Shown here one piece after another: positions 3,258 to 17,816 of a DNA stretch of 20,581 bases (its first letter is position 1; each line of letters opens with the position of its first letter). A model generated the notes under the pieces. It had not been told where the DNA came from. It ran no database searches and saw only the letters and a program-made list of their open reading frames with translations. This DNA is from a virus. The DNA is taken from the IMG/VR virus record IMGVR_UViG_3300023180_000505, positions 1-20,581 of that record. The stretch is one strand, 5' to 3'. A program made the translations under genes and the position numbers.

Positions 3258-3419
3258 CTACTCCTCTAGATTTTTAGACTCTGTGCAGATAACCCAATTA
3301 TACTGGGTTTTCATCTCTTTTGCAAACCACTTTGCAGTGATTTCATCATTAAATTCTCTATGGTGCTGATAAGGAGAAATATCTCCAGGTTCAGCCCAAC
3401 AGACAGTGTATTTACTCAT
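3258..3419 (-). CDS. Small conserved hypothetical protein (53 aa)
   Basis: A 53-residue frame from MSKYTVCWAEPG to SKNLEE, ending in TAG. Its ATG overlaps the TGA stop of DNA polymerase (ATGA), and its stop is followed one base later by the ATG of the next small gene, so it behaves as a coupled operon member. It is rich in aromatic residues (three Trp, three Tyr) and has a WFAKEMKTQYNWVICTE segment that could be a helix followed by a strand. I see no catalytic motif and no membrane segment, and I cannot assign a function. Confidence 0.65.
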   Translation of the reverse strand: MSKYTVCWAEPGDISPYQHHREFNDEITAKWFAKEMKTQYNWVICTESKNLEE

Positions 3420-5914
3420 CCGAAGAAAGACTCCAAACTGATTTTCTTTTCAACAGACCAACCAATAGCATTGAGAATAATCTTCATCGGTTCAACAAAA
3501 GATTTGTCAAACTGTGCATCATAATCAACGTATTGTTCATATCCAAGTTCCCTGGGGAAGTCCTGAATGAAAGAGAAGACATTCTCTTGAATAGGATTTG
3601 GAACTTTCAAGTATAAGAACTTAATCTTCTCTCCGCTTTGAATTGCTGCATACTTCTTATCAAGTCCAACTTTCTTGGTGTAGTGGTTATACAAGATCGC
3701 ACCACGAACATGAATGGGACAACCTTTGTTGTACATGTCAGTGCGAGACATCCACTTATTGATCTCAGAAACACTGCGGGGAAACGCAATCTCTTCTGGT
3801 TTCAGTTTCTTGAATTCCTTACGAGCATTTTCGATGAAGTCAATCACATCATCCTCACCTTTAGTCATGATGATATCCAATGCATCCTTAATATACTTAC
3901 GACATGGTGCAGGAGTAGAAGTTTTGATCGCTTCAATACCCATCATCTTCAGTTTGGGTTTCTCATATCGGACACCCTCACTATCCCAGACACGGAGAAT
4001 ATAACGTTTCTTACCAGTCCAAATACCACGTTCCGCGATGTTCTCGCGTTTCATGATCATTTTGTTTTCGTAGGCGTTGAGGTAAGTGGCCAATTCTTCG
4101 TAAGAACTCTCAATATACTTTTCAAGTTCCATGTGACTGACCTTATCAAGGAAATTAACAATCTCCTCAGTAGACGCCTCTCTACCCTTGAATACTGCGT
4201 CAACAAAAGGACCCATATTAAGGTAGATAGAATCGGTATCAATAGCAATAACATAGTCTACTCCATCAGATTTAAGAACATTGTTTAGATATTTGTTCAT
4301 CTTCTCTTCTATCCATTGGATAGAGACTTGACCAGAGAGTGTAATCGCTTCTGCATTTGCAAGTTTGTAATATCGAAAATACTCATTACCGATGGCACCA
4401 TAAGCGCTATTAAGAGCGATCTTTTTAGCCATTTGGATGTTATCACATCGAGAAATCTCTTTCTCAAGTTCTTTGGTTGGAGTCTTCTCATAAGCTTTCT
4501 TTGCCTCAATCATCTTCTTCTTAAAGATGACACGTTCGTTGTACATTTTTTCCATCAGTTCAGGAAGGAATCCACGCACATCTTTACGGTACATCGCACC
4601 GTTGGCACAAACTGCATTGTCTTTATACATCTCAAAAGTCAGTTCTTTATTCAGAATCTTACTGACTGTCACGTTGGGATGACGTTGTTCAATCAGAGTT
4701 TCTGGAGAGATGTTGTACTGCATGATCAAGTGGGGATATAGTGAGTTAAGGTCAAAGTTGACAACCCACTCATATGCACCAGGGATAGGTTCTTTTACAA
4801 ACGCACCCGCATATTTTTCACTCTTACTGTTACGTTCCTTCTGAGGAATTACAATGTTCTTCTTCAAAAGATAGTTATAAATGATTGCGTCCCAGGTTCT
4901 CACCTGATATGCGATATCGTTGAAGTTTACCTTAGCGTCAAACGCACGAGTGAAACACAAGTCAATCAGTTTCAGTTTATCCTCAAGACGGTCAACCAAC
5001 TCCACGTCAACGATGTTGTACTCTACGAACTTCTGCCAGTTGTTAGTATAAAAGTCACGGAAAGTATCAAATTCAGAGTGATCCAACTTGTTCTGACCCA
5101 ACTCCATGAAGGCGATGTGATCTAGTCGGTAGCTTTCTTGATTCGGAGTCGCAGGAGACTTCTTATAGAGATCGAGGTAGTCCAGAATAGACACACCCGC
5201 AATGCGGCAACTAAGTTGTTTACGACCAGAGATTGTAACCTCATCAACACGAACGATGTTCCACGGAGAGAGACGTTTGGCGAACTTCTCACCCATCAGA
5301 CGGGTCATGCGACCCACTAGGTAGGGCATGTCATACAACTCGTTATTCCACCCTGTAACGACCTCTGGTGGGTTTGCCGTCCACCAGTCCATAAACCTAC
5401 CGATAAGGTCATACTCGTCCGCACACTGGATGAACCTGACGTTCTTCTGCGTAATGTTTGCAGGACGTGAACCAAAAGTAATAATCTGTTTGGTATTGTA
5501 ATCCTGAACCGTGATCAAAAGAAGTTCTTCAGCACAGTTGAAGACATCGGGGAATCCACTCTCAGCTGCAACCTCAATGTCAATGGTGATAACCTTGATC
5601 TTACTACTATCAAACTTAATCTCTTCTTCTGGATAGTTCTGAGCAATGTACTGATAAACATATCGGTCATTCCCATAAACCCTGAACCCATTCACATCCT
5701 GATACTTGTCCAAGAATTCTTTACAGTCTCGGATAGTTCCAGGTTGAATGGGTTCAACATGCTGTCCATCCAAGGTCTTGAACTTACTTTCCTTCTTAGA
5801 AGGAACAAAAAACCTTGGATAAAACTCTTCTCTTTTTGTAAAATGTTTGCCGTTTTCGTATCCACGGACGAGGATATCATTACCTAGTTGAAATACACTT
5901 GTGTAAAACTTCAT
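3416..5914 (-). CDS. 43: gp43-like family B DNA polymerase
   Basis: The 832-residue replicative polymerase with 3'-5' proofreading. Exonuclease motifs are Exo I IDIE (Asp112, Glu114), Exo II in WNNELYDMPYL (about 189-199) and Exo III in YNIVDVELV (Asp303). Polymerase motifs are A NFDLNSLYPHL (about 387-396), B KKIALNSAYGAIGNE (about 497-511) and C IDTDS (558-562), followed by the KKRY element. The C-terminus ISLESFFG fits the short sliding-clamp-binding peptide found at the end of T4-type gp43. T4 gp43 is about 898 residues; this length fits cyanomyovirus homologues. The start ATG overlaps the stop of the Sm-like gene upstream (ATGA). The frame is intact, with no intron or split. Confidence 0.98.
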   Translation of the reverse strand: MKFYTSVFQLGNDILVRGYENGKHFTKREEFYPRFFVPSKKESKFKTLDGQHVEPIQPGTIRDCKEFLDKYQDVNGFRVYGNDRYVYQYIAQNYPEEEIKFDSSKIKVITIDIEVAAESGFPDVFNCAEELLLITVQDYNTKQIITFGSRPANITQKNVRFIQCADEYDLIGRFMDWWTANPPEVVTGWNNELYDMPYLVGRMTRLMGEKFAKRLSPWNIVRVDEVTISGRKQLSCRIAGVSILDYLDLYKKSPATPNQESYRLDHIAFMELGQNKLDHSEFDTFRDFYTNNWQKFVEYNIVDVELVDRLEDKLKLIDLCFTRAFDAKVNFNDIAYQVRTWDAIIYNYLLKKNIVIPQKERNSKSEKYAGAFVKEPIPGAYEWVVNFDLNSLYPHLIMQYNISPETLIEQRHPNVTVSKILNKELTFEMYKDNAVCANGAMYRKDVRGFLPELMEKMYNERVIFKKKMIEAKKAYEKTPTKELEKEISRCDNIQMAKKIALNSAYGAIGNEYFRYYKLANAEAITLSGQVSIQWIEEKMNKYLNNVLKSDGVDYVIAIDTDSIYLNMGPFVDAVFKGREASTEEIVNFLDKVSHMELEKYIESSYEELATYLNAYENKMIMKRENIAERGIWTGKKRYILRVWDSEGVRYEKPKLKMMGIEAIKTSTPAPCRKYIKDALDIIMTKGEDDVIDFIENARKEFKKLKPEEIAFPRSVSEINKWMSRTDMYNKGCPIHVRGAILYNHYTKKVGLDKKYAAIQSGEKIKFLYLKVPNPIQENVFSFIQDFPRELGYEQYVDYDAQFDKSFVEPMKIILNAIGWSVEKKISLESFFG

Positions 5915-6165
5915 TTAGTGAGAGTCAAATAATCATTAAGTAGAGTTTCTTTGGGATCAACCAAAGTCAAAATCTTGTCTGAAGAGATCATAATCGCATC
6001 AGTGTTGGCAGTCAACTCACTCAACCAAGAAGTAAGTTTGCCGTCAACAATCTGATAGGGATTGATCAACTTACAATCAGGCTCTCCAAGTTCCGATACC
6101 ACTGCAGCAATCTTGGAAATAATTGTTTGTCCGTTTACTAGGACAATAACTTGAACATCATCCAT
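5911..6165 (-). CDS. Sm-like (LSm-fold) small protein, paralogue B
   Basis: An 84-residue protein that looks like a divergent copy of the upstream 124-residue protein and of the protein at 9895-10194. The shared pattern is a first strand (VQVIVLVNGQTIISKI), then an INPY turn (residues 35-38), then a strand-turn-strand ending in ILTLVDP and a short helix containing a Tyr. It lacks the FSPW segment of the other two. I interpret it as a small beta-barrel of the Sm/Hfq type. A Sm-like protein of putative cyanophage origin has been solved crystallographically, as I recall, so the fold is known in this setting, but the role is not. The ribosome binding site GGAGGAG lies inside the preceding gene, and the ATG overlaps that gene's stop by 8 bp. 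It is coupled to gp43 downstream. Confidence 0.72.
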   Translation of the reverse strand: MDDVQVIVLVNGQTIISKIAAVVSELGEPDCKLINPYQIVDGKLTSWLSELTANTDAIMISSDKILTLVDPKETLLNDYLTLTK

Positions 6166-6532
6166 TCGACTCCTCCACTAAAATTTGAGAATTAATATTT
6201 TGTTCTTCTAGAGAATCATTCATTTTATTTTCATATGATGATTTAATCCATGGGTGTGGATTAACAACAGTAACTACCCAACTTGGATCTACAGCAACTC
6301 TTTTATCATGAGATAGAATAATCCATGGACTAAATGCAACTTTATGTTCCACTTCCCCATCTTCATTAAATTGATCAATACTACCTTCAACTAACAATTC
6401 AGAAGTCAAAAGACGAGCTATGTATGGATTGGAAAAAACATAAGCTTTGCGATTATTATTTTCATCTACAAGTTCCATGATGTCTGCGATTACTTGTTCT
6501 CCAGACTTCAAAAGTGCCAACTGAACAGCCAT
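6158..6532 (-). CDS. Sm-like (LSm-fold) small protein, paralogue A
   Basis: A 124-residue protein of probable Sm-like beta-barrel fold. Its pattern is ALLKSGEQVIADIMEL (first two strands), FSNPYIARLL, VAFSPWIILS, then RVAVDPSWVVTVVNP and a Tyr-containing helix. The same order appears in the 99-residue protein at 9895-10194 and, more weakly, in the next gene. The C-terminal 25 residues (NDSLEEQNINSQ and onwards) are acidic and probably flexible. It is the first gene after an intrinsic terminator. The start is secure: AGGAGGTAAGGAG precedes the ATG, giving two overlapping Shine-Dalgarno options. It heads the unit that runs through gp43. RNA binding is an inference from the fold, not seen directly. 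Confidence 0.78.
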   Translation of the reverse strand: MAVQLALLKSGEQVIADIMELVDENNNRKAYVFSNPYIARLLTSELLVEGSIDQFNEDGEVEHKVAFSPWIILSHDKRVAVDPSWVVTVVNPHPWIKSSYENKMNDSLEEQNINSQILVEESNG

Positions 6533-6564
6533 AATTACTCCTTACCTCCTAATAAGATACCATG

Positions 6565-6605
6565 AAAAAAGGGAGGTGTCAACTGGATTTTGCCAGTTAC
6601 CTCCC
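6565..6605 (-). terminator. Rho-independent terminator after hsp20
   Basis: On the minus strand a stem GGGAGGT...ACCTCCC (7 bp) continues after a 3-base bulge into AACTGG/CCAGTT (6 bp) with a 6-base loop, and is followed directly by six T residues (6570-6565). It ends transcripts coming through hsp20 and separates them from the Sm-like/gp43 unit. The plus strand has no T tract after the hairpin, so it acts in one direction. Confidence 0.88.
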
Positions 6606-6636
6606 CGTACAGCGTAGCGCCGACGATATTCAGTTT

Positions 6637-6644
6637 TATTTATA
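6637..6644 (-). promoter_or_regulatory. T4-type late promoter box TATAAATA
   Basis: An exact match to the T4 late promoter consensus TATAAATA on the minus strand, 22 bases after the hsp20 stop. It points at the terminator 32 bases further on, so a transcript starting here would be about 60-70 bases unless it reads through into the Sm-like gene. T4-like late promoters need only this box, so chance occurrence in AT-rich sequence is possible. Confidence 0.55.
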
Positions 6645-6666
6645 ATCTATACTCAACTGTTTCGCT

Positions 6667-7101
6667 TTAAAGATAATCTTTACGAGCGTGATGTTCTGGA
6701 ACTATTTTTCCGAGGACGATTCTGAGGAGTCCGTCTTCGAAGGTAACGTCTCGTACTTCGGTGTCGTCGGATAAAGTCCACGCTCTTTTAAAACTTCTGC
6801 TAGCCACGCCCTTGTGGATAAACGTCCTGTCCGATTCTGTATCAGATTTTTGTCCCTCGACAAAAAGTTTTCCATACTCCGTGTACGCATGAACTTCCTC
6901 CTTCTTAAATCCTGCTAATGCGATTTCCAGGTGCGATTCTACATTATTTACCTGAACAAGATTATACGGAGGATAGTTTGTTGAAGTTTCGTGAAGATTA
7001 AACAGACGATCAAAGTATTCGTCCATACCGATACTGTTCTTAGTGATCCTGTCCATAAGTGTGGACAAATCGGCAGCAGTATACCTCGTGAGGTTAGTCA
7101 T
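6667..7101 (-). CDS. hsp20: Small heat shock protein, Hsp20 family
   Basis: A 144-residue alpha-crystallin-type chaperone that would hold unfolding proteins, perhaps capsid or host photosystem proteins, during infection. The N-terminal 35 residues contain the FDRLFNL segment of IbpA-like proteins. The alpha-crystallin domain starts at YPPYNLV and continues through LAGFKKEEVHAYTEYGKLFVEG and FKRAWTLSDDTEV to DGLLRIVL. The last ten residues (PEHHARKDYL) form a short tail. The ribosome binding site AAAGGAG lies 8 bases before the ATG. Unlike most neighbours it is a stand-alone unit: a terminator and late-promoter-like boxes lie on each side, so it is likely regulated separately from the replication genes. 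Hsp20 is a near-universal cyanomyovirus gene. Confidence 0.95.
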   Translation of the reverse strand: MTNLTRYTAADLSTLMDRITKNSIGMDEYFDRLFNLHETSTNYPPYNLVQVNNVESHLEIALAGFKKEEVHAYTEYGKLFVEGQKSDTESDRTFIHKGVASRSFKRAWTLSDDTEVRDVTFEDGLLRIVLGKIVPEHHARKDYL

Positions 7102-7136
7102 TATTGTAGCTCCTTTAAAAGCGAGTTTGTGTTTTG

Positions 7137-7167
7137 TGTACCCTTTCGGCGTACAATACTATTTAAC
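7137..7167 (-). promoter_or_regulatory. Late-promoter-like box plus leader hairpin upstream of hsp20
   Basis: On the minus strand GTTAAATAGTATTG (7167-7154) is followed immediately by a hairpin: stem TGTAC/GTACA plus CC/GG with one bulged G and a GAAA tetraloop (7155-7137). If TTAAATA serves as a degenerate late box, the hsp20 mRNA would begin at or just before this stem, like the 5' stem-loops that stabilise phage mRNAs. The 12-base segment TAAATAGTATTG recurs with one change at 7263-7252. Confidence 0.45.
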
Positions 7168-7170
7168 CAT

Positions 7171-7212
7171 AAAACGAAAAAGAGAGGTAGGGTGACAACC
7201 GTACCTCTCTTT
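7171..7212 (-). terminator. Rho-independent terminator between regA and hsp20
   Basis: On the minus strand AAAGAGAGGTA pairs with TACCTCTCTTT (11 bp including A-T pairs), with an inner GGT/ACC stem across one mismatch, followed by TTTTTCGTTTT. It would end the long replication transcript after regA. The plus strand reading has no comparable T run. Confidence 0.85.
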
Positions 7213-7232
7213 AGGGTGTTCCGACTTTTGTA

Positions 7233-7265
7233 GAGACCGCACGAAAGGTCTCAGTACTATTTATT
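7233..7265 (-). promoter_or_regulatory. Late-promoter-like box AATAAATA overlapping the regA stop, with hairpin
   Basis: AATAAATA (7265-7258, one mismatch to the T4 late consensus) spans the regA stop codon. Directly after it lies a hairpin with a 6-bp stem GAGACC/GGTCTC (7252-7233). The terminator at 7212-7171 follows. The arrangement box, hairpin, terminator could yield a short RNA of about 75 bases. It repeats the design found just upstream of hsp20. Confidence 0.4.
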
Positions 7266-7695
7266 GTGCTTCTGGTTTCTTCTTCTTACCAATGTTATAC
7301 TTACTCTCAAGAACCCAATCGCCCTTATCCTTATAAGAAAGAACTTTAATTTGATTCAGAGGAGCAACATCAGTAATAGATTCTGGTTTGACTACCGAAA
7401 CCAAACCCCAATCGGAAATTAGGTTAATAATTCTATTGCGTCTTTGAACATCATTCACTGTAAGATTTGCGTGTTTACCGTCAAGAGCAAACAACTCTTT
7501 AAAGTGGACAATGTAATAACGTCCTTGTTTATGAAGAATATGACAAGACTGATATATTTTCTTCTCTTTCCTAGAAGCAACACCAATACGAGTCAAAGTT
7601 TCACGAACTTTTAAAAAATCATCGGGTTCATTCAGAACTACTTCAACCATTTGATCTTGTGACCAACTGACTTCAGGTTCAACGAAGGTACTCAT
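7261..7695 (-). CDS. regA: RegA translational repressor of early genes
   Basis: A 144-residue RNA-binding protein that blocks translation initiation of early phage mRNAs, in T4 including its own and those of replication genes. It aligns along its length with T4 RegA (122 aa): EPDDFLKVRETLTRIGVA, IYQSCHILHKQGRYYIVHFKELF, VQRRNRIINLISDWGLV and a C-terminal KYNIGKK. The first about 14 residues and the last 7 extend beyond T4 RegA. The ribosome binding site GGAGG is 7 bases before the ATG, and the ATG overlaps the gp62 stop (ATGA). The order 44, 62, regA is kept from T4, although several genes have been inserted between 44 and 62. Confidence 0.96.
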   Translation of the reverse strand: MSTFVEPEVSWSQDQMVEVVLNEPDDFLKVRETLTRIGVASRKEKKIYQSCHILHKQGRYYIVHFKELFALDGKHANLTVNDVQRRNRIINLISDWGLVSVVKPESITDVAPLNQIKVLSYKDKGDWVLESKYNIGKKKKPEAQ

Positions 7696-8072
7696 CTTTT
7701 GCCTCCAACATCAAGTTTCGATTTGATATGATTAATTTGATCTTTAGTTAGAATCTTCATCGCTTGTTGAGCCTTTTCATTACTATAACCATAGTACGAT
7801 TTTACTGCATCAAGATCTTGAATTTTCTCTTTTTTAAGCCACGGAGAAAATCTTTTCCGTTTCCTGATGGTATTTAGTAAAAAATCATATTGTAGTTTTG
7901 ATGGCAACTGATGATTGAGGTTCATCTCATTTGCAAACATAATTGTATCAACAAAACCAGAGAGACACTTATTAATAATAAAAGGGGGATATCCCTTCTC
8001 AAGTGAATGATCTTCATCAATCAAATTCTTTTTCGTCTGATTGATCGAGTTTAACCAGTCCTTCAATTCCAT
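7692..8072 (-). CDS. 62: gp62-like clamp loader small subunit
   Basis: A 126-residue protein at the place expected for gp62, directly before regA. With gp44 it forms the clamp loader that opens the gp45 ring and places it on primed DNA; gp62 has no ATP-binding motif, in agreement with this sequence. Recognisable parts are YPPFIINKCLSGF (residues about 28-40), MNLNHQLPSKLQYDFLLNTIRKRKRF (about 50-75) and WLKKEKIQDLDAVKSYYGYSNEKAQQAM, all typical of cyanophage gp62. It is much shorter than T4 gp62 (187 aa), as is usual in these phages. The start has GAGAGAA upstream and overlaps the previous gene by 10 bp. Confidence 0.88.
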   Translation of the reverse strand: MELKDWLNSINQTKKNLIDEDHSLEKGYPPFIINKCLSGFVDTIMFANEMNLNHQLPSKLQYDFLLNTIRKRKRFSPWLKKEKIQDLDAVKSYYGYSNEKAQQAMKILTKDQINHIKSKLDVGGKR

Positions 8073-8251
8073 TGAAATTCTCTCATGTAATGTTCAATAC
8101 TCATACCAAATTTTTTTGCCTGGAGTTGATAATATTTGGTACACACATCAACTTCTTCTTGAGTCCAACCCTTTGGGTGTCTCCATACGGCAATATCAAT
8201 TGTTTTCTTACCGATTTTCTGTTTATTGAATTTAATTAATTTTGGACCCAT
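8063..8251 (-). CDS. Small conserved hypothetical protein (62 aa)
   Basis: A 62-residue basic protein whose ATG overlaps the TAA of the DruA-like gene (TAATG) and whose stop overlaps the gp62 start by 10 bp, so it is embedded in the operon. Two parts can be seen: a basic N-terminus (KLIKFNKQKIGKK) and a helical segment HPKGWTQEEVDVCTKYYQLQAKKFG. The WTQEEVD segment recalls the first helix of small Myb/SANT-like or helix-turn-helix proteins, but this is only a resemblance. Function unknown. Confidence 0.72.
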   Translation of the reverse strand: MGPKLIKFNKQKIGKKTIDIAVWRHPKGWTQEEVDVCTKYYQLQAKKFGMSIEHYMREFQWN

Positions 8252-9372
8252 TATCGAATAATATCAATTTCATCTGGGTTTGAATTCCAAGTCTCAACCT
8301 TGGTGCGAAGTCTACCTTCAGACTTCAGTTTTTCATATCGGTTAGAAGCTTTCTTTTTCCACCACTGGATCAGATTCTCCATATGGAACTTGTCATAGTT
8401 TTGACCAGTGCGAAGAACATCCTGTTCACCAAGAATCACTTCCCGTGCATTCTCGAAACCATAATCAGACATATAGAAACGTTTCTGTTCAGTCAGATTT
8501 TTTGCACTTACAATCGCAGTCTGGAACTCCACAGCCTTTTGAGAAGGTAAGTTTTTCTTGATCAGAGAGATCATCTTTTGTTGAGTCTTGAGTTTGCGAC
8601 TCGATGCGTCCTCCTTCACCAGACTCTTGTTCCCGTTGCGTGCTATAAACCATTTGTTCAACTCCTGGAAGATATCGTCATGCAGAAGAGGAGTAAAATC
8701 ACTTTGAGTGAGTCCCCGATACCTCATGTAGGGTTTGAGTCCATCATACTGAGAGGATGACTTTGTAGACCCGTACAGAGATGTAGTCTCAAAGAGACAG
8801 ATGTCTGCATCATACTTACTATTTAATGTCTCACGAGCAGTATGTGAACAACAAAGAAGAGACAGGAGTTTACCACCAAGACAGTTAAACCCGAACGGTT
8901 GAGTGGGAACAATAATGAATCCCATGATCGCATGACGATTGAACCGACTCAATTCTGGAGTCCGACCCAACCAATCATTACGAGGTTTAGAGTTAATCGT
9001 AGGAGAACCGAAACGACAGAATCCAAGGATTTTGTTCGTGTTCATTTCTTTGACAATCCACTTCAAGGACTTCCCAGGAATGGAGTCTTCAATAGCGTGA
9101 GACGTAGTAATCTGCAGTCTCTCACTAAAGTATTCGTTACTAAATCCACCCTTGACACCAGCGGTATACACTTTGATGTCCATATCTTCAGGGTGCATGT
9201 CGAATGCATCAAACATGTCATCTTCAGGGCCCATACCCAGAAGAGACGTTTGCATCTGACTCATTCGGTCAAGTTTAACATTACGCAAGTATTCATCGAT
9301 ACGTCCCATATTAGAGAAGTAATCAATGAATTTGTCTGCTGCATATACTGCATCAATTTCACTTAAATTCAT
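8251..9372 (-). CDS. DruA-like (DUF4338 family) protein
   Basis: A 373-residue protein. The central region, residues about 95-235, follows the pattern of DUF4338, the family containing DruA of the Druantia defence system: ILGFCRFGSP, RNDWLGRTPE, RHAIMGFIIVP, LGGKLLSLL, then YDADICLFETTSLYGS with TKSSSQYDGLKPYMRYRGLT. The counterpart in DruA runs RDxxIGW, RFLILPxV, NLASxILS, LLETFVD, GTxYRAANWxxxGxT. The N-terminal 90 residues and the C-terminal 130 (lysine-rich, ending in RLRTKVETWNSNPDEIDIIR) are outside this core. The biochemical activity of the family is not known to me. The gene is coupled to neighbours at both ends (ATGA upstream, TAATG downstream) and lies between the two clamp loader genes. 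Assignment is from motif memory and should be checked by profile search. Confidence 0.62.
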   Translation of the reverse strand: MNLSEIDAVYAADKFIDYFSNMGRIDEYLRNVKLDRMSQMQTSLLGMGPEDDMFDAFDMHPEDMDIKVYTAGVKGGFSNEYFSERLQITTSHAIEDSIPGKSLKWIVKEMNTNKILGFCRFGSPTINSKPRNDWLGRTPELSRFNRHAIMGFIIVPTQPFGFNCLGGKLLSLLCCSHTARETLNSKYDADICLFETTSLYGSTKSSSQYDGLKPYMRYRGLTQSDFTPLLHDDIFQELNKWFIARNGNKSLVKEDASSRKLKTQQKMISLIKKNLPSQKAVEFQTAIVSAKNLTEQKRFYMSDYGFENAREVILGEQDVLRTGQNYDKFHMENLIQWWKKKASNRYEKLKSEGRLRTKVETWNSNPDEIDIIR

Positions 9373-9893
9373 ATCTTAAGATCACAAACTTCATATTCAA
9401 AAATGGATTTTTCCCTCTCAGTAAATCCAGTACCATACAGTTTACCACATTCAAATGGAATTTTCCTAACAGAATCAATTTTACCTTTAGTATATCTATC
9501 AACAGGAGGGTACTTCAAAATATCATCTTTCCTAATTCGAATGAATTTAGTAAGACTATAATTAAAAAATATCATTACAAACTGATTATGTTTTAAAAAC
9601 TTCTCTTTTCTCTGCAAGAAAGAAATATATCTGTAGTTACTAGGCCAATCAGTGTTCCATTGAGACCACCTTTCAACATCTACAGCATATTTCAATTTTA
9701 CCATCTCATCAAAAACACCAAGATCGACCCCATACTTTCCATATGGTTTTTCTATAATTCGATCAGAAGTTTCGGAATGAGACTTAAGGAACTCAGAAAT
9801 AATAGATATTTCTTTCCCATCGTCAAAGGAATCCCCCCTATCGGAGTAGGATCCAAAGTTTCTAATATCAGTTTTGGTAATGATGTCCGTCAT
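9369..9893 (-). CDS. Hypothetical protein, possible restriction-endonuclease-like fold
   Basis: A 174-residue protein of unknown function. The stretch from residue 50 to 75 (YGKYGVDLGVF then KLKYAVDVERW) has the shape of the PD-(D/E)XK nuclease core: Asp57 at the end of one strand and Asp72-Val-Glu74 in the next, followed by QWNTDWPSNYRYISFLQRKEKFL, which could be the helix that comes next, and a hydrophobic strand FVMIFFNYSL. The usual Lys is replaced by Glu, so the match is imperfect. A role in DNA repair or recombination would suit the neighbourhood but is inference. It is AT-richer than flanking genes. The start lies one base after the Sm-like gene stop, and the stop overlaps the next ATG. 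Confidence 0.6.
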   Translation of the reverse strand: MTDIITKTDIRNFGSYSDRGDSFDDGKEISIISEFLKSHSETSDRIIEKPYGKYGVDLGVFDEMVKLKYAVDVERWSQWNTDWPSNYRYISFLQRKEKFLKHNQFVMIFFNYSLTKFIRIRKDDILKYPPVDRYTKGKIDSVRKIPFECGKLYGTGFTEREKSIFEYEVCDLKI

Positions 9894-9894
9894 T

Positions 9895-10194
9895 TTAAAG
9901 AATCAGTTTCTTTGCTTCTGGAGTAACAATTGTACTTCCACCATAAACTTCATTGTATTTGGTTTTAACTGCAGGATCAACTTCTGCAACATAGATGATA
10001 TGAGTTTTAGCGATACACAACTCTGGAATTGACCTATCAATCACTGAAGCCCATGGAGCAAATCCAACCCTACCATCAGGACTTGGAAGAACTACCAGTC
10101 CATTCTTCAGAGTAACGAAGTTATCATCTTCAGAAATAAGTTCTGCAATGACTTCTTCGCCCGTTGCAATACGAAATAGTTTTACTTCAATCAT
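9895..10194 (-). CDS. Sm-like (LSm-fold) small protein, paralogue C
   Basis: A 99-residue protein of the same pattern as the pair at 5911-6532. It has KLFRIATGEEVIAELI (compare ALLKSGEQVIADIM), TLKNGLVVLP, VGFAPWASVI (compare VAFSPWIILS), ELCIAKTHIIYVAEVDP and a Tyr-containing helix TKYNEVY. The conserved GE(E/Q)VIA and FxPW elements fit the first strands and the middle of an Sm-type beta-barrel. The C-terminus VTPEAKKLIL is a short extension. It lies downstream of gp44 and the small 56-aa gene, with 2 bases between the upstream stop and its ATG, so it is made with the clamp loader genes. Confidence 0.78.
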   Translation of the reverse strand: MIEVKLFRIATGEEVIAELISEDDNFVTLKNGLVVLPSPDGRVGFAPWASVIDRSIPELCIAKTHIIYVAEVDPAVKTKYNEVYGGSTIVTPEAKKLIL

Positions 10195-10196
10195 TA

Positions 10197-10367
10197 TTAA
10201 TCAAAAGTTAAAGGGGTTGACATGTCCAACATAGGTTGGAGTTTACCGAAGTTGACTGCATTTTCAGAAAAAGATAGTTGCAATGCTTCGAGAATTTTAA
10301 GAATGTTTTCTTCTGGATTTTCCTTGAACTTCTCAAGATCCAGAGCAAAGTATTCGGTCTTATTCAT
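10197..10367 (-). CDS. Small conserved hypothetical protein (56 aa)
   Basis: A 56-residue acidic protein from MNKTEYFALDLEKF to STPLTFD. The ATG overlaps the gp44 stop (ATGA), and the gene ends in two tandem TAA codons 2 bases before the next ATG. The sequence reads as one or two amphipathic helices (LEKFKENPEENILKILEALQ) followed by a less ordered tail. I know no family. Its fixed place right after gp44 suggests a small replication-associated factor, but that is only positional. Confidence 0.68.
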   Translation of the reverse strand: MNKTEYFALDLEKFKENPEENILKILEALQLSFSENAVNFGKLQPMLDMSTPLTFD

Positions 10368-14829: not shown

Positions 14830-16839
14830 TCATAAAATATCTTTCAATTTGCCAACCAAATGCCTATTCCAAAAATCATAAATTGAAATTTCTATTTCAG
14901 GATCTACAACATATAAAGAAGACAGACATCTTTGTTGTAAAGTTTGTACTTCGACATGACCATATAAAAATGTAGTTGCATCTGTTGAAAATATATTTGA
15001 TAGATTGATAAACTTTCTACCTTTTCCAACAAAAATATTAGCAAATTTTTCTGAATCTTTATATAAATCAGCAACAACAAACTTAGTTGGCGTTTTTTTG
15101 AATAAACGCCAATATTTGCAAAAATTTTCAACTCCACCAAAATGTTTCATCAACTCCGTTAATGAACTGGTGAAAGATTCATCTTCAACGTATCCGTGAC
15201 TAGTTTTACCCAACCAAACAAAGTTATCTTTCCCAGAAAATTTTCGAATACATTCAACAATATTGTCACTAGGCCATTCATGTAAATGTTTATACCACTG
15301 TAAACTTTTTACATTAAAATCATATACCAGTATTTTTCCACCTGCATTTAATTTTTCGTTCTTAAAAATGTCAAGTAGTTTAAACCCACTTCCAGTATTT
15401 GCAACAAGATCGAACTTCCCTTTATTACTTATTGACATTGTTTCACTATTAAACAACCAAATTTGATCTTTGATCGATAATACATCTGTTAAAATTTTAT
15501 TTTGATTCCAATTTTGACCTTCATATGTAGTCAATGTTTTTATACTATGTTCAAATCTTTCAGTTTCATGTTCTGGGTAACAATAAAACTTATTATGTCT
15601 GATTTTTTCACTCAAAGTTATTACAGGCCAATCACCCAAAAACATTGATGTTAAAAGTTTCCATCCCTGGCCAGAATTTGATTGGAGTTTTTGTTCACCG
15701 GAATACTTGACCCAAAGTGGAGTATAGTCATCATGAAAATTTTCAACGCTCCTTTCAATTACTGGCAACATTTGTTTTGATGGAAACCATTCTCCAAATT
15801 CTGGACATCCAACTTCTTTCCATGCAAAAACGTTTACTATAAAAAATTGAGGGTGCAATTCCAACCAATTTCCAGGCCAAGATAAGATATGTCCAGCTAT
15901 TCCAAAATGATTTTTGTTTATAAAATCTTTTATCTCTCTATCATAATCAAAACTTTTTAATGTACATCCCGCTGACTGAATGACGCAATATTCATATCCC
16001 TTAATCAGAGACTCTTTTAATATTTCGTGTATTTCATCTCCACAAATTATTTCTGCGTTATTTCTAGCTCTATTGAGATAAAACAAAGTTGCTCCTTTAA
16101 ATCTCAAATACATCGAAAAGTTATTAATCTTCTTTATTTGATTGTAGACACCGTAACAAACTTTTTTTTCTCTCATTTTCAGTTGTTTTAATGCTCCATA
16201 GATCAACCTTTCATTAATATCTCCATGAACAATAAAATGATATCTTGGTTGCGTACTGTTATTATATACTGCATGGACATTACCAATGTCTAGAAAAAAT
16301 CCAGTACCTTGTTTAAAAGGCACTCTTCCCCATTTTTCAAAATAAAAATCACAACCAGTGGGATTGTTTATTGCGATGTTTAGTGGACCAAAGATTCTAC
16401 CTTCTCCATCAGAATGTGGCATTATATACCCACCAGGAGATAGTTTCATTATACGAACTCTATCATAACTATGATATCCAAGTTTTTTCAAAAACTTCAC
16501 ACAAGTCGGAAACTGTTCGCAAACATCAGTCCATTTATAATCTGGTTCAGTTAATCCATATTGATCATAATGTTCAGTAGCATCAGATCGAATTCCATGT
16601 AAAGTTAAGGCAGACCAACCTTCATGAGAGTAACTTGAATGTTTATCTTGTTGTCTGTGTCCAACAAAAAGATGATCATTTTCTATGCATTCTTTATGCA
16701 TTTCTCTAAAATCATCCTGAAAATCTATTTGAAGAAAAGGCCAATCAGAATCAAATACATTAAAAGTTCTTTCTTTTCTAGAAGGATACCATTGATTATC
16801 CAATGATTTTTCTATAAATTTGTCAATTATTTTATTCAT
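14830..16839 (-). CDS. Large fusion protein with N-terminal 2OG-Fe(II) oxygenase domain
   Basis: A 669-residue protein that appears to have three parts. Residues about 30-210 resemble aspartyl/asparaginyl hydroxylase-type 2OG oxygenases: ligands HSD (His142, Asp144) after GGYIMP, distal His189 in DIGNVHAVYN and Arg199 in QPRYHFIVHG. Residues about 225-400 are a second domain with YCVIQSAGCTLKSFDYD, FGIAGHILSWPGNWLELHPQ and FFIVNVFAWKEVG, which I take as glycosyltransferase-like by appearance only. Residues about 455-669 contain FDLVANTGSGFKLLDIF and GGKILVYDFNVKSLQWY, a Rossmann-like or methyltransferase-like pattern. The likely role is modification of a protein or glycan, with unknown substrate. 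It is strongly AT-rich compared with neighbours. The ATG at 16839 overlaps the preceding stop (ATGA); ATG 16851 would add four residues. Confidence 0.75.
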   Translation of the reverse strand: MNKIIDKFIEKSLDNQWYPSRKERTFNVFDSDWPFLQIDFQDDFREMHKECIENDHLFVGHRQQDKHSSYSHEGWSALTLHGIRSDATEHYDQYGLTEPDYKWTDVCEQFPTCVKFLKKLGYHSYDRVRIMKLSPGGYIMPHSDGEGRIFGPLNIAINNPTGCDFYFEKWGRVPFKQGTGFFLDIGNVHAVYNNSTQPRYHFIVHGDINERLIYGALKQLKMREKKVCYGVYNQIKKINNFSMYLRFKGATLFYLNRARNNAEIICGDEIHEILKESLIKGYEYCVIQSAGCTLKSFDYDREIKDFINKNHFGIAGHILSWPGNWLELHPQFFIVNVFAWKEVGCPEFGEWFPSKQMLPVIERSVENFHDDYTPLWVKYSGEQKLQSNSGQGWKLLTSMFLGDWPVITLSEKIRHNKFYCYPEHETERFEHSIKTLTTYEGQNWNQNKILTDVLSIKDQIWLFNSETMSISNKGKFDLVANTGSGFKLLDIFKNEKLNAGGKILVYDFNVKSLQWYKHLHEWPSDNIVECIRKFSGKDNFVWLGKTSHGYVEDESFTSSLTELMKHFGGVENFCKYWRLFKKTPTKFVVADLYKDSEKFANIFVGKGRKFINLSNIFSTDATTFLYGHVEVQTLQQRCLSSLYVVDPEIEISIYDFWNRHLVGKLKDIL

Positions 16840-17816
16840 AAACCCATCCAAAAATCATCGAGTAATTCCATACTAGTTACACTTTTAACTTTAGAAAAGA
16901 CTTCTTCATTCCACCTTTTTTGCAATCTCATATCAAAATACCAATCATCACGAACAGGATGAAAATCTAAAAAAGTTTTATCAATTAAAATACTTCCAAG
17001 GTAATATCTACCCAATCCCAGAGTATTTAAATTTTCTATAGGAATCCTTTCTTGAGCTGCTTGATCTACAGTTTCATACCATTTGTAAAATTCTAACTCA
17101 ACTACTTTTTGAATATATGAACTAGATTGAAAACAAAGCCAAACTTCAGAACTATACATTTCCTGAACTTTAACTTGATTATTGGTAACTACTCTAACAT
17201 CATTATCCTGACTTGCACTCAAATAATCTTTACCTAAAGTGTTGTACCCGAGATAAAGTTGACCCCAAGTAAACTCTGTTGATAAAAATAGTTTGTCTTT
17301 TTCTTCTAATTTTCTGCCAGGATAAGGTGGATAAACAGTAACTAAGGCACTATATTGTGGAAACACCTCTCCTGTAGTTTCCATAGCAGTTTCAGTTATA
17401 TGGATCCATTCGTTTAAATCCAACCAACGAGTATGAGCATATTCACCTGCATACAATAAAGGATTTGCTCCATATTCTTCAAATTTTTCGTGCAAATAAT
17501 TAAGAGATTCTCTACCTACATCCTTAGTTCCATTTAGAATAGGTAGACTAACATCTTTTTTGACTTTTTTGTATATTAAGTTAATATCAGAAATTATAGA
17601 ATTTAACTTATCAGTCAATTCTTTCAAATGAGAAATATTTTTATTTGATATTTTTAAATTTAAATATGTCTCCCTATTTCTCCTATATGTTACAACTTCA
17701 TTTATCCACTTTTCTCTTAAACTATTTGGTTGCAGGGAATAAGTTAATCGAAGGGGTTCTCCATTTTCAAGTTCAAAAGTATATCTTACTCCCTTATTAC
17801 CTTCAAAAAAATCCAT
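16836..17816 (-). CDS. Hypothetical protein (326 aa), AT-rich cargo
   Basis: An intact 326-residue protein I do not recognise. The N-terminus MDFFEGNKGVRYTFELENGEP and LRLTYSLQPNSLREKWINEVV look like a beta-rich start followed by a helix. Residues about 60-90 (HLKELTDKLNSIISDINLIYKKVKKD) have heptad-like spacing that could form a coiled coil. The C-terminal half is rich in aromatic residues (WGQLYLGYNTLGKDYL, FYKWYETVDQ, DWYFDMRL). No catalytic motif is evident. It shares low GC and an ATGA junction with the oxygenase fusion gene and is probably co-inherited with it. AGG lies about 9 bases before the ATG, and only 31 bases separate it from the gene upstream. Confidence 0.8.
   Translation of the reverse strand: MDFFEGNKGVRYTFELENGEPLRLTYSLQPNSLREKWINEVVTYRRNRETYLNLKISNKNISHLKELTDKLNSIISDINLIYKKVKKDVSLPILNGTKDVGRESLNYLHEKFEEYGANPLLYAGEYAHTRWLDLNEWIHITETAMETTGEVFPQYSALVTVYPPYPGRKLEEKDKLFLSTEFTWGQLYLGYNTLGKDYLSASQDNDVRVVTNNQVKVQEMYSSEVWLCFQSSSYIQKVVELEFYKWYETVDQAAQERIPIENLNTLGLGRYYLGSILIDKTFLDFHPVRDDWYFDMRLQKRWNEEVFSKVKSVTSMELLDDFWMGL

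What the first reader, a model, noticed from the sequence alone, without database searches (positions are those of the whole stretch)
5911..10194. Three Sm-like (Hfq/LSm-type) paralogues within the replication operons
Proteins at 5911-6165, 6158-6532 and 9895-10194 share one pattern: a sGE(E/Q)VIA strand, an NP or NG turn, an FxPW element (absent in the 84-aa copy), a strand ending in VVxVVxP/ILTLVDP and a Tyr-containing final helix. I recall a published crystal structure of a Sm-like protein of putative cyanophage origin, so the fold is plausible. Three different copies beside gp43, the clamp loader and RegA suggest a hetero-oligomeric RNA- or ssDNA-binding ring, possibly a phage counterpart to Hfq acting with RegA or on host small RNAs. 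The role is undescribed as far as I know.
Basis: partly seen in the sequence, partly recalled or inferred. Interest (0 to 1): 0.8.

Follow-up and report, generated by a model that had tools for sequence, protein, structure and literature searches.

The report
Sm-like protein paralogues beside phage polymerase
A marine virus of cyanobacteria carries three related small proteins with the ring-forming Sm fold, known elsewhere from RNA-handling machines, placed in fixed positions beside its DNA-replication genes; the fold was already known from one metagenomic relative, but the set of paralogues and its tight coupling to the polymerase gene appear undescribed and their job is unproven.

Summary
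The three ORFs are at the stated coordinates (all on the minus strand) and are homologous to each other, unlike control families from the same window. All three have solved structure 3BY7, an Sm/LSm-like protein from ocean metagenomes, as best PDB match. Predicted structures of the 84- and 124-aa proteins superpose on 3BY7 chains at 1.3-1.9 Å for the better matches, and nearly all further PDB matches shown are Sm/LSm proteins. They are not Hfq: no Hfq or LSM sequence model matches, and the helix is C-terminal.

They belong to four ancient paralogue families (PHROGs 431, 483, 527 and 471, the last often annotated "methylamine utilization"). All 15 T4-like cyanophages checked carry 3-5 copies; T4 carries none. 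Positions are fixed: 431-483-gp43 (gp43 directly follows 483 in 75 of 75 distinct loci, usually overlapping ATGA), gp44-527, and uvsW-471-gp55.

RNA binding is unproven. Every member is acidic, and only the 84-aa family conserves the loops where Sm proteins hold nucleotides. My best reading: 431 and 483 form a heteromeric Sm ring made together with gp43 that acts on nucleic acid around replication; 527 is a homomer. Action with RegA or host small RNAs has no support.

The parts
5911..6165 (-). Sm-like protein, 84 aa (PHROG 483, Pfam DUF6561); stop codon overlaps the gp43 start (ATGA)
   Evidence: 89.9 bits, cut-off 27; 3BY7 E 3e-5; AF2 model vs 3BY7_C TM 0.82/0.84, rmsd 1.4 A
6158..6532 (-). 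Sm-like protein, 124 aa (PHROG 431), acidic disordered C-terminal tail; overlaps the 84-aa gene by 8 nt
   Evidence: 3BY7 E 4e-8; AF2 model vs 3BY7_A TMt 0.93, rmsd 1.3 A
9895..10194 (-). Sm-like protein, 99 aa (PHROG 527), the subfamily to which 3BY7 belongs; conserved C-terminal tail (I/V)TPxxKKLIL
   Evidence: 3BY7 E 3e-10; tree: with 3BY7 98/92
6571..6606 (-). terminator-like hairpin GGGGAGGTAACTGG-CAAAAT-CCAGTTGACACCTCCC followed by six T (6570-6565)
   Evidence: kept with compensatory stem changes in relatives
6554..6582 (-). sigma-70-type promoter TTGACA-N17-TATCTT, its -35 box embedded in the hairpin's 3' arm; opens the 431-483-gp43 transcription unit
   Evidence: TTGACN-TANNNT in 58 of 69 distinct upstream regions of 431 against 2.4% background
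3416..5914 (-). gp43 DNA polymerase, directly downstream of and overlapping the 84-aa Sm gene

Best explanation
These are three members of a cyanophage-centred radiation of Sm-fold proteins. Shown: Sm-type fold (predicted for two, homology to 3BY7 for the third), common ancestry, ancient split into four families, and fixed genomic slots. Inferred: the 124-aa (431) and 84-aa (483) proteins, which are adjacent, overlapping, sister paralogues, co-assemble into a heteromeric Sm ring, made from its own promoter and translated in coupling with gp43. The ring uses the 84-aa protein's conserved inner loops to hold a short single-stranded nucleic acid stretch, most likely phage mRNA or template/primer strand near the polymerase, so that polymerase output or access is tuned. 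The 99-aa protein (527) works separately as a homo-oligomer (pentamer, like 3BY7) with a C-terminal docking tail.
For: Fold: 3BY7 is top for every query; below the 3BY7-derived hits nearly all PDB hits listed are Sm/LSm. Ancestry with negative controls. Pair logic: 431 lies directly upstream of 483 in 73/77 distinct loci and gp43 directly follows 483 in 75/75; both families are present in all 15 T4-like cyanophages; 431 and 483 group together in the tree (94/88), 483 is one clade at 100/99. Pocket: in 483 the loops L3 and L5 (the nucleotide-binding loops of Sm proteins, established knowledge) are the most conserved part (0.81 and 0.97 against 0.67, p = 0.0004). Homomer for 527: it is 3BY7's subfamily, the LSm part of TIP60 is pentameric (PMC10374429), and 527 is absent from 10 of 15 genomes that carry the pair. 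Promoter.
Against: No nucleic-acid binding has been shown. All 83 aligned family members have net negative charge (-2 to -16, against +4 for the E. coli Hfq core). The canonical Sm2 Arg-Gly is absent: loop 5 reads SSDK, DPSW or AKTH. In 431 and 527 the loops L3/L5 are not the conserved part. Co-assembly was not modelled: no multimer prediction was available. The 84-aa vs 99-aa direct profile match is weak. Operon adjacency can reflect shared expression only.
Confidence: 0.4

Rival explanations
1. Protein-interaction adaptors: the Sm rings do not bind nucleic acid but act as scaffolds that dock onto replication, recombination or late-transcription proteins encoded next to them (gp43, gp44/62, UvsW/gp55), with the family-specific C-terminal tails as docking peptides.
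For: All members acidic. Each of three families has its own conserved tail: 527 ends in KKLI(L/V), the last five residues among the most conserved parts (0.94 against 0.75); 471 ends in GY(L/V)G(S/T)(V/I)...LExIYK and part of 431 ends in an acidic linker plus ENFEV. Slots beside specific protein partners are fixed. Cyanobacterial Hfq, an Sm protein of the host, lacks RNA-binding residues and is thought unlikely to act in RNA metabolism (PMC10989914).
Against: The Sm fold is overwhelmingly used for RNA; the conserved pocket loops of 483 need an explanation; the acidic net charge does not exclude a local basic pore.
Confidence: 0.35
2. One reading: one mixed ring of all three proteins that acts like Hfq on phage mRNAs with RegA, or on host small RNAs.
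For: Shared fold, same replication region, RegA nearby.
Against: 527 is missing from 10 of 15 genomes that keep 431 + 483 and in S-RIM8 lies in a different neighbourhood, without gp44 or gp62; RegA is separated from the pair by hsp20 and a terminator-like hairpin; no Hfq sequence or topology match.
Confidence: 0.08
3. Independent homomeric rings with unrelated jobs that merely share a fold; the gp43 coupling reflects timing of expression only.
For: Low identity between families, different tails, 3BY7 alone is solved as a homo-oligomer (five chains in the entry).
Against: Near-invariant order 431-483-gp43 with overlaps across very divergent phages is more than timing usually requires.
Confidence: 0.15
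4. Not Sm proteins at all: the motif similarity is accidental for small beta-barrels.
For: Sequence identity to 3BY7 is only about 20%.
Against: Profile hits, predicted structures with 1.3-1.9 A fit and control families exclude it.
Confidence: 0.02

Closest known systems
PDB 3BY7, Sm/LSm-like protein from ocean metagenome (JCVI_PEP_1096686650277)
   Same: Best sequence and structure match of all three; falls with the 527 family; a gene whose GOS homolog is 3BY7 lies in a phage-like marine contig with gp17/gp18 homologs (PMC2530865).
   Different: Only the 99-aa protein is its closer kin; the 84- and 124-aa proteins are separate ancient families in another slot, coupled to gp43.
Pfam DUF6561 (PF20198)
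   Same: The 84-aa protein is a full member (89.9 bits, cut-off 27); the matched part of the 3BY7 sequence also passes (32.2 bits), which gives this DUF its fold.
   Different: The 124-aa protein scores below the cut-off (22.1) and the 99-aa protein is not matched.
Pfam Sm_like (PF16243) / PHROG 471 ('methylamine utilization'), the uvsW-gp55 paralogue
   Same: Same superfamily; already deposited as 'Sm-like RNA and/or DNA processing protein' in S-SCSM2R.
   Different: Different slot and C-terminal tail; outside this window fragment. The methylamine name has no support.
Hfq (bacterial Sm protein)
   Same: General five-strand Sm barrel; possible ring.
   Different: No Hfq sequence match, helix at the C-terminus instead of the N-terminus, acidic, RNA-contact residues not recognisable.
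Eukaryotic and archaeal LSm/SmAP proteins
   Same: Nearest structural group after 3BY7; eukaryotic LSm rings are heteromeric from paralogues.
   Different: No LSM Pfam match; the Sm2 Arg-Gly is missing; ring size and RNA binding unknown here.

Membership tests
Sm/LSm superfamily | Sm-type five-strand barrel | tested here: met
   AF2 models of the 84- and 124-aa proteins match 3BY7 (E 9e-5 and 7e-6), then Sm/LSm proteins; the 99-aa protein only by profile homology to 3BY7, E 3e-10
Sm/LSm superfamily | Sm1/Sm2 sequence motifs as captured by Pfam LSM | tested here: not met
   No Pfam hit up to E = 1 other than DUF6561; loop 5 lacks Arg-Gly in all three
Sm/LSm superfamily | ring-shaped oligomer | not testable with these tools
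   3BY7 holds five chains and the derived TIP60 uses a pentameric LSm (PMC10374429); no multimer prediction available
Sm/LSm superfamily | binds single-stranded RNA | not testable with these tools
   Indirect evidence is divided: conserved L3/L5 in 483 only, acidic charge in all
Hfq | Hfq sequence model | tested here: not met
   no Hfq hit at E up to 1
Hfq | N-terminal helix before strand 1 | tested here: not met
   Strand 1 starts at residue 3-4; the only long helix is C-terminal
3BY7 / DUF6561 cyanophage Sm-like family | profile membership | tested here: met
   84 aa: DUF6561 89.9 bits; 124 aa: PHROG 431 E 7e-24 and 3BY7 E 4e-8; 99 aa: PHROG 527 E 3e-29 and 3BY7 E 3e-10
3BY7 / DUF6561 cyanophage Sm-like family | carried by T4-like marine cyanophages, absent from T4 | tested here: met
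   15 of 15 T4-like cyanophages plus pelagiphage HTVC008M (471 type only); T4 and S-TIM5 have none

The most novel reading that the evidence does not exclude
Cyanophages have evolved a virus-encoded heteromeric LSm-type ring (431 + 483) dedicated to the replicative DNA polymerase, made in translational coupling with gp43 and acting on its mRNA or at the replisome; with the 471 and 527 rings this would be a multi-ring Sm system specific to viruses.
Probability: 0.2. Interest if true: 0.82.

Novelty: new variant of a known kind. Interest (0 to 1): 0.55.

Why it matters
Kyanoviruses are very abundant marine viruses, and these genes (3-5 per genome in all 15 T4-like cyanophages checked) sit among their replication genes yet are labelled 'hypothetical' or 'methylamine utilization'. 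Recognising them as one Sm superfamily with fixed partners turns several core unknowns into a testable question: does a DNA phage run its own LSm-like rings, on RNA, on ssDNA or on proteins? Many of the hosts have no Hfq or an Hfq that does not bind RNA, so a viral Sm system would be doing something the host lacks.

Tried and rejected
Rejected: Hfq membership. A single ring of all three proteins (presence pattern). A cellular origin: three hits in a genome collection were phage fragments binned into MAGs, with gp43, hsp20 or RegA beside them. A known riboswitch or other RNA family, or a tRNA, in the window: none. A repeated copy of the hairpin-promoter elsewhere in the window: only one. Literature on DUF6561, 'putative cyanophage origin' or 'methylamine utilization' in cyanophages: nothing on function in the held library; the 3BY7 paper itself was not found there, so its claims are cited from memory only. 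Profile comparison of the 84- and 99-aa families directly is inconclusive.

Full report
What is there. The window is a 20,581-base virus record, a fragment of a T4-like marine cyanophage whose recognisable genes lie on the minus strand. The three ORFs are real and exactly placed, but on the minus strand: 84 aa (6165 to 5911), 124 aa (6532 to 6158) and 99 aa (10194 to 9895). Relatives of all three, in the same order, occur in Synechococcus phage S-SCSM2R, annotated there 'DUF6561' twice and 'TIP60 protein', and in many IMG/VR contigs.

Are they one family? PHROGs files them in three families (483, 431, 527) that cross-match each other and a fourth, 471. With alignments of 36, 28 and 19 relatives, hhalign gives 431-527 prob 96 / E 1e-9 and 483-431 prob 95 / E 2e-8. 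The direct 483-527 comparison is weak (prob 2.6), but 471 links to all three at prob 87-97. Eight unrelated families from the same window reach at most prob 5.2. So common ancestry is shown, in one case through intermediates.

Which fold? Profile searches of the PDB put 3BY7 first for each family (E 3e-5, 4e-8, 3e-10). AlphaFold2 models of the 84-aa (pLDDT 86, pTM 0.77) and 124-aa protein (pLDDT 79, pTM 0.66, tail disordered) show five main strands (DSSP splits some of them) and a C-terminal helix. Foldseek finds 3BY7 chains first (84 aa: TM 0.79-0.82 by query; 124 aa: TM 0.87-0.93 by target), with the TIP60 cages built on a pentameric LSm (PMC10374429) among them, then almost only Sm and LSm proteins from spliceosomes and archaea. 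The 3BY7 entry title calls it structurally similar to Sm/LSm-like RNA-binding proteins. I recall its paper (Das et al. 2009) describing a pentamer of putative cyanophage origin with a suggested role in RNA and/or DNA processing; that paper was not found in the held library.

How widespread? Four searches over 18 phage records find 471 and the 431+483 pair in all 15 T4-like cyanophages tested, including freshwater S-CRM01. 527 is present in 5 of 15. P-HM2 has two 431 copies and S-RSM4 five Sm genes in all. Pelagiphage HTVC008M has only the 471-type gene, in the same uvsW-gp55 slot. T4 and S-TIM5 have none. A tree of 62 rows makes 483 one clade (100/99), puts 3BY7 with 527 (98/92) and groups 431 with 483 against 471 plus 527 (94/88). 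The paralogues are therefore old. 471 is found in 466 phage records, many annotated 'methylamine utilization', although the S-SCSM2R member passes the Pfam Sm_like cut-off.

Gene arrangement. Among distinct 483 genes with enough flanking sequence, 431 lies directly upstream in 73 of 77 and gp43 directly follows in 75 of 75, mostly with the four-base overlap ATGA. 527 follows gp44 in 51 of 60 cases (seven of the other nine are at contig ends). In this window 431 and 483 overlap by 8 bases, 483 and gp43 by 4. Upstream of 431 there is a terminator-like hairpin whose 3' arm carries the -35 box TTGACA of a sigma-70-type promoter, about 45 bases before the start codon. The promoter pattern is found in 58 of 69 distinct upstream regions against 2.4% of random stretches, and the stem is kept by compensatory changes, e.g. 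GGGAGG/CCTCCC, GAGGGG/CCCCTC. The sequence alone suggests that this unit starts its own transcription and is set apart from hsp20 and RegA; no transcript data were available.

How might it work? Sm proteins hold nucleotides with loops L3 and L5 around the pore (established knowledge). In the 84-aa family these loops, (S/A)(E/D)(L/I)G(E/Q)PDC and ISSDKI, are the most conserved part of the protein (p = 0.0004). In the 124- and 99-aa families they are not (p = 0.82 and 0.99); there the KSGE/TGEE turn, the FxPW element and, in 527, the C-terminal tail are conserved. All 83 aligned sequences have net negative charge, whereas the E. coli Hfq core is +4. The canonical Sm2 Arg-Gly is replaced. Taken together a heteromeric 431:483 ring in which 483 supplies the pocket is the reading I prefer, with the polymerase or its mRNA as the likely place of action because of the strict coupling. 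A pure protein scaffold is almost as likely: the host's own Hfq lacks RNA-binding residues and is judged unlikely to act in RNA metabolism (PMC10989914). The 99-aa protein, grouped with 3BY7 and often absent where the pair is present, more likely forms its own homo-oligomer and docks through its KKLIL tail.

What is new. The fold of this protein kind and its cyanophage link were known, and single members carry Sm names in databases. I found no description of the four-family system, of the fixed 431-483-gp43 coupling, or of the common identity of DUF6561, PHROGs 431/483/527 and the 'methylamine utilization' gene. The library lacks most subscription papers, so this absence is weak evidence. The function remains open.

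Noticed in passing
6554-6606 (minus strand): Terminator-like hairpin with a sigma-70-type promoter in its 3' arm, highly conserved in relatives with compensatory stem changes; resembles the promoter-stem-loop cassettes (PeSLs) that I recall from T4-type phages.
   Followed up: partly
8251-9372 (minus strand): 373-aa protein of PHROG 19197, annotated 'methylcarbamoylase mom' in S-SCSM2R, with a Pfam hit to Druantia protein DruA (E 5.5e-9, above cut-off); often follows the 527 gene (45 of 60 loci). Possible DNA-modification or defence-related gene.
   Followed up: no
L114:2129-2542 and PHROG 471 members: The core cyanophage gene between uvsW and gp55 is widely annotated 'methylamine utilization' but belongs to the Sm_like superfamily; likely misannotation.
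   Followed up: yes
14830-16851 (minus strand): 673-aa ORF with an aspartyl/asparaginyl beta-hydroxylase-type domain near its N-terminus (PF05118, E 4e-10) and a long C-terminal part without a Pfam match.
   Followed up: no
L251, L252, L253: Phage fragments with the 431(-483)-gp43 or hsp20/RegA neighbourhood binned in MAGs labelled Formosa, Thermoplasmata and Paceibacterota; probable contamination or misbinning.
   Followed up: yes
BFVD hits of the 84-aa model: Weak but high-probability Sm-like fold matches in large phages of proteobacteria (BcepSauron, Atu_ph07, phiRSL1, RL38J1), so viral Sm-like proteins may reach beyond cyanophages.
   Followed up: no
10197-10367, 9369-9893, 16836-17816 (minus strand): ORFs of 56, 174 and 326 aa without any PHROG or Pfam match.
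   Followed up: no
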